Source: Paenarthrobacter sp. A20
Lineage (GTDB): Bacteria; Actinomycetota; Actinomycetes; Actinomycetales; Micrococcaceae
Length of the DNA stretch: 64,000 nt
Reading direction: 5' to 3'
NCBI RefSeq assembly: GCF_024168825.1
Contig: NZ_JALJWH010000001.1
Location: 744,001-808,000, forward strand
Shown: piece after piece, positions 35,789 to 42,118 of the stretch
How the letters are laid out: each line of letters opens with the position of its first letter
Numbering within the stretch: the first letter of the stretch is position 1
Translations under genes and position numbers: made by a program
The notes under the pieces: generated by a model
Database searches by the model: none
What the model was told of the DNA's origin: nothing
The model's input: the letters and a program-made list of their open reading frames with translations, nothing else

Positions 35789-35792
35789 GGAG

Positions 35793-35829
35793 CACGACGT
35801 CGGCACTCACGGTGAGTGCCGACGTCGTG
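35793..35829. repeat. Dispersed GGCACTC hairpin, copy 4
   Basis: CACGACGTCGGCACTCAC (35793-35810) and GTGAGTGCCGACGTCGTG (35812-35829) are perfect complements around one base, 4 bases after the GH13 stop and before the convergent PPK2 gene. Confidence 0.75.
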
Positions 35830-36826: not shown

Positions 36827-37381
36827 CTAACAACCGTTGGTGACGGGAACATGAACAGGTGCCAGATCGATCCAGTAGCGCCGAAACAGACGTCCATCCG
36901 CATCCGTCCGGGTGTCCTCGAGCGCCCCACCTCCACGCTCGATGGTCTTGGCGGAGGCGGCGTTCGTATCGTCGCAGGTCAGCAGAACCCGCTCAGGCCT
37001 TCCCTGCGCAGCCAAGCGGGAACACAACTCCCGCAGGGCCCATGACGCCGCCCCCCGGCCGCGATCCGAGGGCCGGACACCATATCCAATGTGCCCGCCG
37101 GAGTTCAGGAGTGCGGGGGTGAGGTAGTGCCGGAATGCAATGGCGCCCACGTACCGTGAGCCTTCGGTAATCCAGAGGTAGGTGCAGGGAACAATGCCGT
37201 CCTTCTCCGCCGTTTGCGCGGCGTCCTCCAGTTGCCGAATCCACGCCGCGAACCCTTCGGGGGTGATGACGTCGTCCGCCATGAATACCCCTGCGCCGTC
37301 CTGATGAGCCCCGTCCCACTCGCGGTGGGACTCAAGGAAGGACTGGTGGAAAGAGACATCCGGAGCGACGAGCTTAAACAT
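36827..37381 (-). CDS. GNAT-family N-acetyltransferase, possible immunity factor of the microcin C-like cluster
   Basis: 184 residues from ATG 37381 (MFKLVAPDVSF); a start at 37405 is also possible. GNAT features: WITEGSRYVGAIAFRHYL beta4-like strand, the acetyl-CoA loop GYGVRPSDRGRGAASWALRELC (about 110-130), and LTCDDTNAASAKTIERGGG. It is divergent from the peptide-antibiotic precursor gene, sharing the 144-bp control region. In E. coli the C-terminal domain of MccE is a GNAT that acetylates processed microcin C and gives self-immunity; position suggests the same role here, but no direct evidence. Confidence 0.85.
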   Translation of the reverse strand: MFKLVAPDVSFHQSFLESHREWDGAHQDGAGVFMADDVITPEGFAAWIRQLEDAAQTAEKDGIVPCTYLWITEGSRYVGAIAFRHYLTPALLNSGGHIGYGVRPSDRGRGAASWALRELCSRLAAQGRPERVLLTCDDTNAASAKTIERGGGALEDTRTDADGRLFRRYWIDLAPVHVPVTNGC

Positions 37382-37454
37382 GAAGTCGACCCTATACCTC
37401 GCCACGGCAGCGGCGGCGACACGGACGCGACACGCGGATAAATAATCGACAAAC

Positions 37455-37484
37455 TTGTCATACGCACAACAAGCGTCGTATATT
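37455..37484 (+). promoter_or_regulatory. Promoter of the microcin C-like operon
   Basis: TTGTCA (37455-37460) and TATATT (37479-37484) with an 18-base spacer give a good vegetative promoter, predicting transcription from about 37491, 35 bases before the precursor start. The -35 box overlaps a small inverted repeat GACAA-AC-TTGTC (37449-37460). The stretch is clearly more AT-rich than its neighbours. Confidence 0.6.
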
Positions 37485-37525
37485 CGTTCCGTCCAGCGAG
37501 TTTATAAAACAAAGGAGTGAATCAA

Positions 37526-37585
37526 ATGCTTAAGCTGAAGCGACTGGCAAAGCGCCGTTCCAAGCTGAACTTCGTGTTCAACTGA
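37526..37585 (+). CDS. Microcin C-like precursor peptide (19 aa)
   Basis: ATG 37526 to TGA 37583-37585 encodes MLKLKRLAKRRSKLNFVFN. AAAGGAG at 37511-37517 is an ideal ribosome site, 8 bases from ATG. The peptide is strongly cationic (seven Lys/Arg, no acidic residue) and ends in Asn, the residue that MccB enzymes convert to the nucleotide-linked warhead in microcin C. It is followed by a stem-loop and an MccB-like gene, the order of the E. coli mccA-mccB pair. The Met-Leu-Lys start and 19-residue length resemble Gram-positive MccA-type precursors I recall from Bacillus. It is too short for routine gene calling. Expected product: a peptide nucleotide that is processed in the target cell to an aspartyl-tRNA synthetase inhibitor. 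Confidence 0.85.
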   Translation: MLKLKRLAKRRSKLNFVFN

Positions 37586-37598
37586 ACCAAGCAGAAAT

Positions 37599-37629
37599 AG
37601 TGGGGACCACGCAATGCGTGGTCCCCACT
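37599..37629 (+). terminator. Attenuator-type stem-loop between precursor and modification gene
   Basis: AGTGGGGACCACGC (37599-37612) and GCGTGGTCCCCACT (37616-37629) form a perfect 14-bp stem with loop AAT, 13 bases after the precursor stop and before the ribosome site of the MccB-like gene. A partial terminator in this place would make precursor mRNA far more abundant than mRNA of the enzymes, as known for mcc operons. Confidence 0.78.
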
Positions 37630-37647
37630 CATCATTGGAGGCAAGAA

Positions 37648-38685
37648 TTGGCAGCCACTACCTACTCACTCAAACAGTCCCTCCCGGTTGTGACAACGGA
37701 GACGGCCGTACACATCGGACTGGCACCGCCCAACGCAATTGAAATTGAGGACGCCCCGCCTGGGCTCGCCGAATTGCTCGGCTTTGCATCGCACCCCCGG
37801 ACGCTGGATGACTTGGGCGCCAAGGCACAGGACCTGCTTGGTGGCGACTCCGGGCAGATCGTTGAGGAGCTCATCGAGGCTGACATTCTGGTCCCGTACA
37901 GGTTCGACCTCACCGGCCGGTACAGCCGCCACGATCTCTACTTCGAACTTGCCCACGGCACAGGTCCGGGCGCAAGCGATCTGCTGCGCAGCCGGAAAGT
38001 CGCGCTCATCGGCGTTGGAGGCATCGGCACGAATGTGGCCATGCAGCTCGCAACAGCGGGGGTGGGGGTCATCATGCTGGTCGACGGCGACACAGTGGAA
38101 GAAAGCAACCTCACCCGGCAATACCTCTTTACGGCACAAGACGTTGGCGCTTCGAAGATCGAAGCCGCCGCACGGAACCTTCAGCTTCGGGCTCCGGCCA
38201 CCAACACGGTTGAAGTCGCGGCCATGATCTCCGGCGTTGAAGATCTTCTGCCGATCTTTCAGGACGCAGACTTCGTAGTGGTATCCGCAGACACGCCCCA
38301 GGAAGTGCTTGAGTGGTCCAACGAGGCCTCCATCGCCACCGGCACGCCGTTCACCTGTGCCGGATACCAGGACACGCGCGGCGTGGTGGGACCAGTTGTC
38401 AGGCCCGGCACAACCCCTTGCCTGCAATGCGCAGCAACTGACAACGACGTACGCACCAACTCCAGGGCGTCGCTCACCACGGCAAACCTCAATACTGCAT
38501 ACCAAGCCCCAAGCTTTGGCCCCCTGAACGCCATCGTGGCCTCCATTGCCGCTATGGAGGTGTTCCGTTACCTGCTCACTGGATCCACCAACCTGGACGG
38601 CAGAAGGCTGGTGTTCGACTCCCTGGAGTTGTCGTCCGAGTTCGAAGATTTCGCCAGGAACAAGCGCTGTGCTGCGTGTTCCTGA
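37648..38685 (+). CDS. mccB: MccB-like ThiF/E1 enzyme (peptide nucleotidyltransferase)
   Basis: 345 residues from TTG 37648, chosen because GGAGG at 37637-37641 lies six bases before it; an upstream GTG (37600) would lie inside the hairpin. Residues 1-105 form an N-terminal peptide-binding (peptide-clamp-like) domain. The adenylating E1 domain follows: GVGGIGTN (122-129), VDGDTVEESNLTRQ (145-158), K170, and zinc-binding CLQC (258-261) and CAAC (341-344). Size and layout fit MccB (about 350 residues), which joins AMP (or CMP in some relatives) to the C-terminal Asn of the precursor. A generic ThiF/MoeB role is unlikely given the precursor directly upstream and the exporter downstream. Confidence 0.85.
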   Translation: MAATTYSLKQSLPVVTTETAVHIGLAPPNAIEIEDAPPGLAELLGFASHPRTLDDLGAKAQDLLGGDSGQIVEELIEADILVPYRFDLTGRYSRHDLYFELAHGTGPGASDLLRSRKVALIGVGGIGTNVAMQLATAGVGVIMLVDGDTVEESNLTRQYLFTAQDVGASKIEAAARNLQLRAPATNTVEVAAMISGVEDLLPIFQDADFVVVSADTPQEVLEWSNEASIATGTPFTCAGYQDTRGVVGPVVRPGTTPCLQCAATDNDVRTNSRASLTTANLNTAYQAPSFGPLNAIVASIAAMEVFRYLLTGSTNLDGRRLVFDSLELSSEFEDFARNKRCAACS

Positions 38686-38707
38686 CTGCGATCCAGGGAA
38701 GGTGCTG

Positions 38708-39151
38708 GTGACCCTGACTGGCGCCTACGTAGTCGCATCCCTCGGTGCCACCATCGCCAACAGGAACTTCTGGCCCATCGCATCCAACAACATGTTCAAC
38801 GCAAAGTTCGGGGACCGGGTGTCACGCTTCGCGGTCGAATTTCACCTGTCGGACGGAACCGTGGTCACGTGCGGTCCCGCCAACTGCCTGCCAACCCAGT
38901 TCTTCCGGGCCGGGGCAATGTTCGCCAACATTTTCATGGCTGCTGACGAGCAACCAAAGCGCGTCCTTTGCCAGAGAATTGAGAACCGTCTTCGCCGAAA
39001 CAGGTGGAAACCTTTCGATGAGGTCCGGGCACCCGCCCATCTGCCCAACATTCCACTGGGCAGGATGGACATTCTTGTGGAGACCACCGTTCGGGGAATG
39101 CCTGAGGAAAAGGAAGTCGTGTACACCTATGTTCCGTCGATTTCGCGCTAG
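38708..39151 (+). CDS. Small membrane-anchored partner of the HTTM protein, unknown (147 aa)
   Basis: GTG 38708 follows GGGAAGG (38696-38702); GTG 38702 overlaps that site and is less likely. An N-terminal hydrophobic segment (TLTGAYVVASLGATIA) is followed by NRNFWPIASNNMFNAKFGDRVSRFAVEFHLSDG and a basic, Cys-containing region. The aromatic WPxxxxxMF pattern resembles small proteins that accompany HTTM/VKGC-like membrane proteins, such as the SdpA-SdpB pair of the Bacillus SDP toxin system (analogy by pattern and position only). 22 bp after mccB; overlaps the next gene by 23 bp. Probably a maturation or transport accessory. Confidence 0.7.
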   Translation: MTLTGAYVVASLGATIANRNFWPIASNNMFNAKFGDRVSRFAVEFHLSDGTVVTCGPANCLPTQFFRAGAMFANIFMAADEQPKRVLCQRIENRLRRNRWKPFDEVRAPAHLPNIPLGRMDILVETTVRGMPEEKEVVYTYVPSISR

Positions 39152-39962
39152 ATCAGTCACGTCCCGGCAGGTTCGTGCTGCTGGAGTGTGGATCGTCGCC
39201 GCCTTGGCGGTAACGCTTCGCCCAGGTCCGGCGGCAGCGCAGGACTACAGGGCCGCAGTTGCTTCGACGGACGTGGATGCGGATCCAGTTTCTGATGCCC
39301 GCAAGCAGTGGGCTGCCCGACGCGCGGCAACTGCCCTCCTGTTGGCGGCCGCGGCGACGAGCGAGGTGTACAGCGGGCCTGGCGCAAGGCACGCGCCGTG
39401 GCTTCGGCGGACAGCTCTGGGAGTGTTCCTGGGGACTCGCGCCGCGGATGCCCGGTCACTTCCAGGGCGTTGGCCTTACGACACGTTTATCGAGGTCGTA
39501 CTTCTCACAAGTCAGCTGTCCACGCCGGCGAACAGGCAGCCGGCCAGCCTGCCGCTCTCCGTCTCGCGCGTGGCCCTGTACCTGCCCTACACCCAGGCAG
39601 GCTTATCCAAGCTCATCCACGGTTTCGACGCCTGGGTCCATCGTGGCGACGCCAACCATATTTACCACCGGCATTTGAAGGCATCGGCCGGCCACCCATT
39701 TGCGCAGGAGCGATTTGACCTGCCTGTTCGGGCAATGACCCGACTCATTCCATTTCTTGAATTTCTCGCACTCCCACTGGCATTGGTCCTCCCCGGCAGG
39801 TTCCGGATCCTGGTTCCATGCTGCACCACCATATTCCATATGATTATTGCCCGCACGTGGAATATCAGCTTTTGGCAGGCCCCACTCATGCAATGGTTGA
39901 TGGTGTCGACGGAAAAGCAGCCCGATCTCGCAATCATTCTCCGCGCATCCCGAGGTGATTAA
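39129..39962 (+). CDS. HTTM/VKGC-like integral membrane protein of the microcin C-like cluster
   Basis: 277 residues from ATG 39129. Several membrane segments; the second half carries the HTTM-type pattern VALYLPYTQAGLSKLIHGFDAWVHRG, HPFAQERFD, IPFLEFLALPLALVLPGRFRILVPCCTTIFHMIIARTWNISFWQAPLMQWLM. HTTM proteins are related to the membrane part of vitamin K-dependent gamma-carboxylase; SdpB of Bacillus is a relative used in toxin maturation. It overlaps the partner gene and the exporter gene, so all are one operon. An HTTM protein is not part of classical mcc operons known to me, so it may add or export a modification. Confidence 0.75.
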   Translation: MFRRFRARSVTSRQVRAAGVWIVAALAVTLRPGPAAAQDYRAAVASTDVDADPVSDARKQWAARRAATALLLAAAATSEVYSGPGARHAPWLRRTALGVFLGTRAADARSLPGRWPYDTFIEVVLLTSQLSTPANRQPASLPLSVSRVALYLPYTQAGLSKLIHGFDAWVHRGDANHIYHRHLKASAGHPFAQERFDLPVRAMTRLIPFLEFLALPLALVLPGRFRILVPCCTTIFHMIIARTWNISFWQAPLMQWLMVSTEKQPDLAIILRASRGD

Positions 39963-41187
39963 ATTGTCGCTGGCAAAGACATGGCAGAGACGTCTCCACC
40001 TGACCGGAATGTGGGTGAATTCGCTGGGTGGCGGCGCGTACAACATCGCACTCCCCCTCATAGTCCTCCAAACGAGCGGCAGCCTCGCCCAGATGTCCAT
40101 CGTGGCCGTGGCATCACAGCTGCCCAAGGCCTTCCCTGGAGTACTCATCGGCGGACTCGCTGACCGCATGTCGCCCCGCACCATGACCCACATTGGCTAT
40201 TGGGGCCAGGCACTGGTTGTTGCCGCGATGGCGCTGCTTATCGGCCCGTGGCACACACCCTTCTGGGTTCTGGTGCTCGGCGCGTTCCTGCGCGGCAGCC
40301 TCGACATGTTCGCCAGAACAGCCACCTTCGTGGCCATTCCGAAAATGTACGGCGAAGGCACAGCCAAGTTCAACGCATCAGTGTCCACTGCGTGGACTTC
40401 CGCTTCCATTGTGGGACCGGCCATCGGCGGCGCCCTGAGTGCCGTTTGGGGCCCCTGGTGGTTGCTGGCCGTGGACGCGGTGTCCTTTACCGTCATCGCA
40501 ATGATCATGAATTTTCTGCCGTGGCCGGACCGCCCTACCAGGCAACCTGACCGCCCCGGCTTCTTCAAGGATCTTTCAGCCGGGTACCGAAGACTCTCCC
40601 AAGTCAATGGTTGGTGGCGCTTTGCCGGAACCGTTGTCCTCATCGGCTTCCTGTCCGCCCCGCTGTCCACGCTCGCGATCTTCCAGACGTCAGTTGGCCT
40701 TGGAGGCTCTACTACGGAAGTGGGAATCGTCGGCGCGGCTGCGGCTGCGGGACTGTTCTGCGGGTCAATATTGTCCGGCCTGGTCTCCGCTTGGCAACCG
40801 AACCTGTTGATGCAACGTTCCTCGTGGCTTATGGCAGGAGGAGCTTTGCTCTTCTTCATCCCGTCGTGGATTGCCGTTGCGGGTGCGCTGTTCGTTGTCT
40901 GCACGGGCGGCATTGCGTGGACGATTGGGCGCACTTCCCTCATTCACCAACAGATCCCCGCGTCCGATCTTGGCAAGACCATGACCGCCGTCCAATTCTT
41001 GGAAACAGTGTCGAGCCCCCTCAGTCTTGCCGTCGCCACCTTCCTCATGGGCGTGTCCTCATTCATGGCCTTTGCCTCGATACTCCTGGCAGCACTTCTT
41101 TCAGGGGTACTTGCCATCAAGTCGGGATCGATGCTGAAGCCGGGTGAACTGCAAGCCGAGGACAAGGAAAGCGAGCCCGTCCACTAG
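39955..41187 (+). CDS. MFS exporter of the microcin C-like cluster (MccC-like)
   Basis: 410 residues, about 12 membrane segments, of the MFS_3/enterobactin-exporter-like group: VIGGLADRMSPRTM motif A near residue 60 and second-half repeats. GTG 39955 overlaps the HTTM gene by 8 bp; TTG 39964 with GAGG eight bases upstream is an equally good start. MccC of E. coli is an MFS pump that exports microcin C and gives partial immunity; order and strand suggest the same task. Last gene of the operon. Confidence 0.85.
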   Translation: MIKLSLAKTWQRRLHLTGMWVNSLGGGAYNIALPLIVLQTSGSLAQMSIVAVASQLPKAFPGVLIGGLADRMSPRTMTHIGYWGQALVVAAMALLIGPWHTPFWVLVLGAFLRGSLDMFARTATFVAIPKMYGEGTAKFNASVSTAWTSASIVGPAIGGALSAVWGPWWLLAVDAVSFTVIAMIMNFLPWPDRPTRQPDRPGFFKDLSAGYRRLSQVNGWWRFAGTVVLIGFLSAPLSTLAIFQTSVGLGGSTTEVGIVGAAAAAGLFCGSILSGLVSAWQPNLLMQRSSWLMAGGALLFFIPSWIAVAGALFVVCTGGIAWTIGRTSLIHQQIPASDLGKTMTAVQFLETVSSPLSLAVATFLMGVSSFMAFASILLAALLSGVLAIKSGSMLKPGELQAEDKESEPVH

Positions 41188-41209
41188 CAGTAGCCCGCGG
41201 CGTCGGGAC

Positions 41210-42118
41210 CTAGTCGGTTGAACTGGCCCGCGGCAGTTTCCGGCCCTGGACAGCAGCGTGCGTTTTTTGAAGTGCCGTGACCGATGATTCGTAGGAGCGC
41301 TGGGCAACTCCCACGAAGAGACAGTCCACAACCATCATCTGGGCGATCCGGCTGCCCATCGCACCGGACCTGAAAGGCGTCTCGCGCGCGGCGGTGGCCA
41401 GCACAATATCGGCCGCCCGCCCCAAGGTCGAGTTGGCATGGTTGGTGATGGCAATGGTGGTGGCTCCTGCCGCTTTTGCTGCCAGCAGGAAGTCGACCGT
41501 ATCCACGGTGGTCCCCGAATGCGAGATGGCGACAGCAACGCCGTCGTCGTCCAGGAGCGCTGCAGAGGCCAAGGCGCCATGGGGGTCTGACCAGCTGAAG
41601 GACGTCACGCCGATCCTGTGCAGTTTCTGCTGCAAGTCCTGGCAAACCAGGCCTCCTGCGCCAACTCCAAAGATATCGGCCTTCCGCGAGCGGGAGATCG
41701 CGTCAACTGCCTCAGCGAGCTTGCCGACGTCCAGCACCTGCGCTGTATCTGCGATGGACATGGTCTCGTTTAAGGCAATCTTGGAAACGATGTCGCGCAG
41801 CGAGTCGGACGTGTTGATGTCTTCGTAGACCTCTGCCGACACGTTGTGGGCCAGGCTCTCGCGGGCGGTCTCCCGGGCAAGGTCGAGGCGCAGGTCCGAG
41901 TAGCCGCGGTAGCCCACCTTCTTGTAGAAGCGGACCACTGACGTGGTGGACGTTCCACCCTGCTCGGCAAGGTCACCAATGGACATCATGGCCGCCCGGG
42001 AAGGATCCGCCAGGACCAACTCGGCGACAGCCCGCTCGGAGGGGCGCAGCGCTGGCAAGGCGGAACGGATCCGCACCAGCACAGTCCGTGACAACTGCGC
42101 GCTTTCTGCGTGTTCCAT
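41210..42118 (-). CDS. RpiR/MurR-family transcriptional regulator
   Basis: 302 residues: N-terminal RpiR helix-turn-helix (RPSERAVAELVLADPSRAAMMSIGDLAEQGGTSTTSVVRFYKKVGYRGYSDLRLDLAR) and a SIS sugar-phosphate-binding domain (KADIFGVGAGGLVCQDLQQKL, AISHSGTTVDTVDFLLAAKAAGATTIAITN). AGGAAGGAAA precedes ATG 42118. Divergent from the NamZ/NagZ-type cell-wall glycosidase genes, so it probably represses them and responds to MurNAc-6-P or a related sugar phosphate. Confidence 0.9.
   Translation of the reverse strand: MEHAESAQLSRTVLVRIRSALPALRPSERAVAELVLADPSRAAMMSIGDLAEQGGTSTTSVVRFYKKVGYRGYSDLRLDLARETARESLAHNVSAEVYEDINTSDSLRDIVSKIALNETMSIADTAQVLDVGKLAEAVDAISRSRKADIFGVGAGGLVCQDLQQKLHRIGVTSFSWSDPHGALASAALLDDDGVAVAISHSGTTVDTVDFLLAAKAAGATTIAITNHANSTLGRAADIVLATAARETPFRSGAMGSRIAQMMVVDCLFVGVAQRSYESSVTALQKTHAAVQGRKLPRASSTD

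What the first reader, a model, noticed from the sequence alone, without database searches (positions are those of the whole stretch)
36827..41187. Probable microcin C-like peptide-nucleotide antibiotic cluster in an actinobacterium
Seen: a 19-codon gene ending in Asn (MLKLKRLAKRRSKLNFVFN) with a perfect ribosome site; a stem-loop right after it; a ThiF/E1 enzyme of MccB size with both zinc CxxC pairs; an MFS exporter at the operon end; a divergent GNAT gene. Known: microcin C systems consist of mccA (short peptide ending in Asn), an attenuating hairpin, mccB, an MFS exporter mccC, and a GNAT immunity domain in MccE. Inference: the operon makes a cationic peptide nucleotide that, after cleavage in the target cell, blocks aspartyl-tRNA synthetase. 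The precursor is too short for standard gene calling, so the locus may be annotated only as ThiF and MFS.
Basis: partly seen in the sequence, partly recalled or inferred. Interest (0 to 1): 0.95.

Follow-up and report, generated by a model that had tools for sequence, protein, structure and literature searches.

The report
Microcin C-like antibiotic operon in Paenarthrobacter
An actinobacterium carries a compact five-gene operon, encoding a 19-residue peptide that ends in asparagine and a relative of the microcin C enzyme MccB, that likely makes a Trojan-horse peptide-nucleotide antibiotic; two of its genes match no known family and are predicted to encode membrane proteins.

Summary
The 345-aa enzyme is closest to MccB among solved structures (family profile: MccB 251 bits, PaaA 132, ThiF 121). 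The 19-codon Asn-ending frame and the hairpin behind it recur in all 10 distinct same-genus loci examined. Two distant MccB relatives also have a short basic Asn-ending frame with a strong hairpin beside the enzyme; one of these clusters carries MccD, MccE-decarboxylase and MccE-acetyltransferase homologues. A microcin C-type pathway is well supported by sequence; product, nucleotide and target are inferred. First, the operon holds two overlooked genes (38669-39151, 39129-39962), found in all 10 loci and matching no family above cut-off; no known tailoring gene is present. Second, the GNAT is an older chromosomal gene: 37 of 198 same-genus genomes have it at 71% identity or more, but only 10 carry MccB, all among the 37. 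The mcc genes form a ~3.8-kb unit set against the GNAT start, with empty sites in relatives. Actinobacterial mcc clusters are published, so this is a new variant of a known kind.

The parts
37382..41228 (+). mcc unit: stretch absent from an mcc-less relative, between the GNAT start codon and the SIS-domain gene
   Evidence: blastn against mcc-less L034: homology ends at 37381 and resumes at 41229; same kind of site L028 vs L039 (3,831-bp insert) and L025 vs L049
37455..37484 (+). sigma-70-like promoter TTGTCA-N18-TATATT before mccA
   Evidence: consensus scan, 1 found vs mean 0.2 in shuffles; TTGTCA invariant in 10 loci
37526..37585 (+). mccA-like precursor gene, 19 aa MLKLKRLAKRRSKLNFVFN, C-terminal Asn, RBS AAGGAG
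   Evidence: conserved in 10 of 10 same-genus loci; Asn-ending basic short frames beside mccB in L009 and L011/L023
37599..37629 (+). hairpin between mccA and mccB, 14-bp stem
   Evidence: searches (z -3.49; 126 of 126 cells paired, no covariation above control), hairpins after the short frame also in L009, L023 and E. coli L033
37648..38685 (+). mccB-like ThiF/E1 nucleotidyltransferase, 345 aa, TTG start, CxxC pairs at residues 258/261 and 341/344
   Evidence: phmmer and profile vs PDB, hhalign to E. coli MccB E 2.1e-49, Pfam ThiF 151.6 bits
38669..39151 (+). P2: 160-aa protein of unknown family with one predicted N-terminal membrane helix; conserved NRNFWPIASNNMFNA stretch
   Evidence: present in 10 of 10 loci
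39129..39962 (+). P3: 277-aa predicted multi-helix membrane protein of unknown family (sub-threshold LMF1 matches)
   Evidence: present in 10 of 10 loci
39955..41187 (+). MFS transporter, likely exporter (mccC role)
   Evidence: Pfam MFS_1 73.1 bits; 36% identical to the MFS at the end of the L009 mcc cluster
36827..37405 (-). GNAT acetyltransferase, divergent neighbour; candidate immunity gene, but an older chromosomal gene
   Evidence: Pfam; adjacent to mcc in 10 of 10 mcc+ loci but in 37 of 198 same-genus genomes at 71% identity or more

Best explanation
This is a microcin C-type operon: it encodes a 19-residue basic peptide ending in asparagine, an MccB-family enzyme that is predicted to join a nucleotide to that asparagine, two predicted membrane proteins of unknown role, and an MFS protein that likely exports the product, which would enter neighbouring bacteria, lose its peptide and block their aspartyl-tRNA synthetase. 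Shown by sequence: gene content, homology, conservation, and presence or absence as one ~3.8-kb unit beside a resident GNAT gene. Inferred: N-P bond formation on Asn19, nucleotide identity (AMP or CMP undetermined; the enzyme has no carboxymethyltransferase domain, so carboxymethylation is not expected), export, uptake, AspRS as target. Also inferred: the hairpin limits read-through from mccA into mccB, as the terminator between these genes in E. coli is held to do; the resident GNAT may acetylate and so disarm processed product; P2 and P3 likely act together at the membrane in handling or tolerating the product.
For: Enzyme: MccB is the top solved structure for the single sequence (140 bits; next best UBA7 68, ThiF 66, PaaA 60) and for a 16-member profile (251; PaaA 132, ThiF 121); hhalign aligns 297 columns to E. 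coli MccB. The 29 plasmid records matched by tblastn at E 1e-25 are 27 Escherichia and 2 Salmonella, none covering 80% of the query; the one opened is pMccC7-H22, with ThiF-MFS-methyltransferase-GNAT-S66 order and MRTGNAN plus hairpin upstream. Peptide: Asn-terminal in 10 of 10 loci; against the window the differences are silent ones plus L4I, A8T, F16L, ATG/GTG starts and TGA/TAA stops. Distant relatives: L009 has VLNIKRITARVLRGRLKN, hairpin, an MccB-GNAT fusion (GNAT's best PDB hit is MccE, E 0.003), an MccD homologue (39.5%), an MccE-decarboxylase homologue (28.5%) and an MFS 36% identical to the window's; L023 has MKSIILKIKRIVRVKGSHFGSFN with a hairpin next to an MccB-methyltransferase fusion. 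The three precursors share a hydrophobic-x-hydrophobic-K-R-hydrophobic start (LKLKRL, LNIKRI, LKIKRI), read by eye from those outputs. Published minimal cluster: mccA, mccB and an exporter (PMC9239234, passages).
Against: No product, activity or expression evidence. No MccF-type S66 peptidase found in the genome and only one AspRS, so self-protection rests on an unproven GNAT, a standalone S51 peptidase or the unknown genes. The window's MFS has no blastp match to E. coli MccC at E up to 1. Single-sequence phmmer does not align residues 1-88 to MccB; the profile reaches position 11 only against PaaA, so the precursor-binding domain is likely but not proven. One of the 10 same-genus mccB copies is frameshifted. 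The hairpin shows no covariation above control.
Confidence: 0.82

Rival explanations
1. A ThiF-like RiPP pathway of another chemistry (pantocin-like ring formation, thiolactone or indolylamide macrocyclisation): the enzyme would activate the peptide C-terminus but join it to a side chain instead of a nucleotide.
For: The E1 fold is shared by PaaA, GrcB and IndF-type enzymes (review passages PMC12250964; PMC12150305 start of abstract in search listings); the profile covers the N-terminal domain only against PaaA.
Against: PaaA scores 119 bits below MccB. The peptide has no Cys, Trp or Glu, and ends in Asn in all 10 loci and in two distant clusters. L009 carries homologues of MccD and MccE, which decorate the peptidyl nucleotide in E. 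coli.
Confidence: 0.08
2. A housekeeping MoeB/ThiF-type sulfur-transfer enzyme beside a chance short frame.
For: Pfam ThiF matches above its cut-off (a superfamily model); NCBIfam MoeB and ThiF models match far below their cut-offs.
Against: Weaker than MccB by more than 100 bits; present in only 10 of 198 same-genus genomes as an accessory unit with empty sites; short frame conserved.
Confidence: 0.02
3. Same operon, but P2 and P3 (not the GNAT) are the self-protection system, and the GNAT is a bystander at the insertion point.
For: GNAT occurs in 27 mccB-less genomes at 71% identity or more in two chromosomal neighbourhoods and on its tree the mcc label needs 5 changes, at least 3 forced. 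P2 and P3 are in every mcc+ locus examined, and four searches found no P2 or P3 away from near kin except one 37% P2 relative (one search scored a capped candidate list).
Against: All 10 mcc+ loci keep the GNAT directly adjacent and divergent although the flanks differ; E. coli MccE2 protects by acetylation (PMC9239234 passages) and L009 fuses a GNAT to MccB.
Confidence: 0.4
4. P2-P3 are a maturation pair analogous to SdpA-SdpB of Bacillus, acting on the peptide at the membrane before or during export.
For: Similar layout: a ~160-aa protein with one predicted helix followed by a larger multi-helix protein in a peptide-toxin operon (Sdp layout recalled and seen in L012, L013); hhalign of P3 to the two SdpB-like rows aligns 38 columns, E 0.039; sub-threshold LMF1 matches in 5 of 13 P3 members.
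Against: P2 to SdpA: E 0.22 over 17 columns; no Sdp model listed for P3 at E up to 10 or for P2 and P3 at E up to 1; the SdpA model finds nothing in this genome; structure models are poor (mean pLDDT 52.8 and 41.5) and give no PDB match at E 0.001. The Sdp profiles compared held only two sequences each.
Confidence: 0.2

Closest known systems
E. coli microcin C (mccABCDEF, pMccC7-H22)
   Same: Short Asn-ending mccA, hairpin, mccB, MFS exporter; mccB homologous, 32% identity
   Different: 19-aa strongly basic peptide instead of MRTGNAN; no mccD, mccE decarboxylase or mccF; two extra predicted membrane-protein genes; MFS not detectably related pairwise
Actinobacterial mcc clusters: Nocardia vaccinii and Mycobacteroides abscessus (PMC9239234), putative ones in Nocardiopsis and Thermobifida (PMC7157772 passages)
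   Same: mccA/mccB core in Actinomycetota; N. vaccinii precursor is 21 aa (Results, part 1 of 2)
   Different: N. vaccinii MccB is fused to a carboxymethyltransferase and its cluster has mccS, mccD, mccE1, mccX, mccG; no homologue of a methyltransferase, decarboxylase or peptidase was found among the window operon's genes
Bacillus amyloliquefaciens peptide-carboxymethyl-cytidine
   Same: 19-aa precursor, four-gene cluster (review passage PMC12250964; the primary paper is not held)
   Different: carboxymethyl-cytidine made there; no carboxymethyltransferase domain here
L009 cluster (contig of a MAG labelled Gammaproteobacteria)
   Same: closest cluster with full context outside the genus: mccB 42%, MFS 36%, Asn-ending basic peptide, hairpin
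   Different: GNAT fused to MccB, plus MccD and MccE-decarboxylase homologues; no P2 or P3 match
Pantocin A (PaaA)
   Same: E1-like enzyme with a precursor-binding domain (PMC12250964 passage)
   Different: score far lower than MccB; its chemistry on internal Glu residues is recalled
SdpABC of Bacillus
   Same: small plus large membrane protein pair in a peptide-toxin operon (recalled)
   Different: no significant similarity found

Membership tests
microcin C-like (mcc) clusters | precursor peptide with C-terminal Asn next to mccB | tested here: met
   10 of 10 same-genus loci and two distant clusters
microcin C-like (mcc) clusters | ThiF-like nucleotidyltransferase closest to MccB | tested here: met
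microcin C-like (mcc) clusters | exporter gene | tested here: met
   MFS overlapping the operon, 36% to the L009 MFS; export itself untested
microcin C-like (mcc) clusters | hairpin between mccA and mccB (E. coli type) | tested here: met
   (no T-run; function untested)
microcin C-like (mcc) clusters | N-terminal precursor-binding (RRE) domain of MccB | tested here: inconclusive
   profile covers it against PaaA (position 11 on); hhalign against MccB from about residue 48; phmmer only from residue 89
microcin C-like (mcc) clusters | peptidyl nucleotide with N-P bond on the Asn | not testable with these tools
   needs enzyme assay and mass spectrometry
microcin C-like (mcc) clusters | AspRS as target | not testable with these tools
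   only one AspRS in the genome says nothing on the target
MccE2-type GNAT immunity | GNAT related to the MccE C-terminal domain | tested here: inconclusive
   22% identity, E 3e-6; not among PDB hits up to E 0.1
MccE2-type GNAT immunity | gene belongs to the mcc unit | tested here: not met
   adjacent in 10 of 10 mcc+ loci but outside the inserted unit and present in 27 mccB-less of 198 genomes
MccD/MccE aminopropylation or MccS/MccB carboxymethylation | methyltransferase, decarboxylase or cxSAM genes in the operon | tested here: not met
   none among the operon's genes
Pantocin A (PaaA) | enzyme closest to PaaA | tested here: not met
   132 vs 251 bits for MccB
SdpA/SdpB | match of P2/P3 to SdpA/SdpB profiles | tested here: not met
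   (that NCBIfam holds an SdpB model is recalled)
LMF1/HTTM-type membrane proteins (P3) | match above Pfam cut-off | tested here: not met
   LMF1 best 17.6 bits vs cut-off 27, 5 of 13 members at E up to 10; no HTTM match listed

The most novel reading that the evidence does not exclude
A distinct class of microcin C system in which a membrane-protein pair of a new family replaces all known tailoring and immunity genes, and whose operon moves as a precise unit that docks at the start codon of a resident acetyltransferase, turning a chromosomal gene of the host into its immunity gene.
Probability: 0.3. Interest if true: 0.72.

Novelty: new variant of a known kind. Interest (0 to 1): 0.52.

Why it matters
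Peptide-nucleotide antibiotics are few and their precursors, here 19 codons, fall below usual gene-calling limits; named database entries for close relatives call the enzyme 'TOMM precursor leader peptide-binding protein' or 'ThiF family adenylyltransferase'. A lineage without known tailoring genes gives a clean way to ask what two unknown predicted membrane proteins contribute, and present/absent pairs of closely related strains make the value of the unit directly testable.

Tried and rejected
P2/P3 as SdpA/SdpB: not supported. Structures of P2 and P3: low-confidence models (mean pLDDT 52.8 and 41.5), so the fold searches are uninformative. P2 and P3 elsewhere: P3 profile in 1 of 198 phylum genomes and P2 profile in 1 of 246 class genomes, in both only the window's own. 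Spare AspRS as immunity: one AspRS only; the two other matches lie in one 516-aa frame, probably LysRS (my reading). MccF: none. Phages: no match in 50,697 records at E 1e-20. Hairpin covariation: one two-sided change, not above the shuffle control. Literature: the listings show no paper on an mcc cluster in Arthrobacter or Paenarthrobacter; one Paenarthrobacter paper that mentions a microcin once (PMC10812812) was not opened; the one Arthrobacter mention seen in an mcc paper is a standalone MccG homologue. The library lacks most subscription papers, among them two mcc papers I asked for, so prior mention cannot be excluded.
Full report
Observation. The window contains, on the + strand, a 19-codon frame (37526-37585), a 14-bp stem (37599-37629), a 345-aa ThiF-type frame (37648-38685), two further frames P2 (38669-39151, 160 aa) and P3 (39129-39962, 277 aa), and an MFS frame (39955-41187), with a divergent GNAT (36827-37405). 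Overlaps of 17, 23 and 8 nt tie mccB, P2, P3 and MFS together. A sigma-70-like promoter lies at 37455-37484.

Enzyme. Against solved structures MccB leads clearly: 140 bits with one sequence, next best 68 (UBA7), ThiF 66, PaaA 60; 251 with a 16-row profile, PaaA 132, ThiF 121. hhalign to E. coli MccB covers 297 columns, E 2.1e-49. Of the four CxxC cysteines three are invariant in the 16 rows and one nearly so. NCBI entries of close relatives are named 'TOMM precursor leader peptide-binding protein' or ThiF.

Peptide and hairpin. Ten distinct same-genus loci (window, L003-L008, L024, L025, L028) all encode a 19-residue peptide ending in Asn; residue changes are L4I, A8T and F16L plus ATG/GTG starts. 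The stem pairs in all 126 cells, with one two-sided change, which is not above the shuffle control. mccA is conserved at the base level beyond its protein: 14 of 15 invariant residues (of codons 2-19) keep one codon across 9 loci, against 39 of 243 in mccB, where no run of invariant codons exceeds 2 (the frameshifted L007 was left out; the loci are related, so this is not an independent count). The codons include CGA, 6% of Arg codons in the window's long ORFs. The reason is unknown.

Distant relatives. L009 (42% mccB, contig of a MAG labelled Gammaproteobacteria) has VLNIKRITARVLRGRLKN, a hairpin, an MccB-GNAT fusion, a methyltransferase 39.5% identical to MccD, a decarboxylase 28.5% identical to MccE, and an MFS; its GNAT's best PDB match is MccE, E 0.003. 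L011/L023 (39% mccB, same family as the window's genome) has MKSIILKIKRIVRVKGSHFGSFN with a hairpin, downstream of an MccB-methyltransferase fusion. The E. coli plasmid record shows the reference architecture, MRTGNAN-hairpin-mccB. These give independent support for a peptidyl-nucleotide pathway.

Distribution. MccB at E 1e-30 or better: 10 of 198 same-genus genomes, 1 of 396 phylum genomes (only the window's own); at 1e-40, 3 of 295 family genomes; at 1e-25, 2 of 396 order genomes. These draws overlap and score a limited number of candidates per genome. One of the ten (G351) has a frameshifted mccB.

The GNAT. At 71% identity or more over at least 170 residues it is in 37 of 198 same-genus genomes (my count; one of them, G328, shows a stop inside the match), including all 10 with mccB, hence 27 without. 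Twenty loci of these 27 were fetched; none of the 20 holds an mccB, P2, P3 or MFS match at E 1e-10. Eighteen of the 20 carry marker genes of the same two neighbourhoods (PPK2/SIS-domain, or FAD-dehydrogenase/ion-channel/lipoprotein, in varying order); L035 and L038 match none. On a GNAT tree of 30 rows the mcc label needs 5 changes, at least 3 forced by well-supported branches, though it is more clustered than in most shuffles (3 of 500 as low). L028 (mcc+) and L039 (mcc-less) align at 96% and 93% on either side of a 3,831-bp insert that begins 12 bases before the GNAT start codon; in the window homology to L034 stops at the GNAT ATG (37381) and resumes at 41229. L025 against L049 shows the like in the second neighbourhood, with 106 unmatched bases on the mcc-less side. 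So the mcc genes come or go as a unit docked at this gene. That fits immunity by a resident GNAT, or the GNAT as mere recombination anchor.

P2 and P3. Present in all 10 loci (in L028 the P2 match starts at residue 24). Database searches find 8 P2 and 15 P3 proteins, near kin apart from P0008 (37% over 67% of P2) (the P3 search scored a capped list). No Pfam or NCBIfam family above cut-off. By hydropathy P2 has one helix (12-30); P3 has segments at 203-230 and, at a lower threshold, 10-35 and up to 243, and its low-confidence model is all helix, so 'membrane protein' is a prediction. Resemblance to SdpA/SdpB or LMF1 is a lead, not a finding.

Mechanism and standing. Known steps for microcin C (passages): MccB turns the C-terminal Asn into an N-P-linked nucleotide; the exporter releases it; peptidases in the target free an Asp-nucleotide mimic that blocks AspRS; GNAT, MccF, MccG or MccH protect producers. 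In E. coli a terminator lies between mccA and mccB (PMC6495379 passage). The window fits the minimal published set (mccA, mccB, exporter) with two additions. Actinobacterial mcc clusters are published (N. vaccinii, M. abscessus; Nocardiopsis and Thermobifida as putative). Hence: new variant of a known kind.

Noticed in passing
37526-37585 and the same frame in L003-L006, L008, L024, L025, L028: mccA codons are conserved far beyond the protein (14 of 15 vs 39 of 243 in mccB), including a rare CGA; codons 14-19 also hold a small stem TGAAC-TTCGT-GTTCA. A base-level function of mccA mRNA is possible.
   Followed up: partly
L007 / L027 (G351): mccB is split over two frames near residue 233 while P2, P3 and the MFS each match as one piece; either decay or a sequencing error.
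   Followed up: no
37455-37472 and the same place in L005, L008 and L028: In L005 and L008 a perfect inverted repeat TTGTCAT-N4-ATGACAA overlaps the -35 box (6 of 7 pairs in L028, degenerate in the window); TTGTCA and ACA parts are invariant in 10 loci, so an operator is possible.
   Followed up: no
G000:C1:1062772-1063326 (L058): Standalone S51 peptidase in the window's genome; the family includes MccG, so it could add immunity.
   Followed up: no
about 35791-35829 and copies in L034, L040, L044, L045, L046: A ~33-44-base repeat occurs in both orientations beside the PPK2 gene (blastn).
   Followed up: no
L047 vs L024, L025: An ion-channel-like gene (my label) lies beside the GNAT in mcc-less L047 but beyond the FAD-dehydrogenase in mcc-bearing L024/L025, so the second neighbourhood is itself rearranged.
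   Followed up: no
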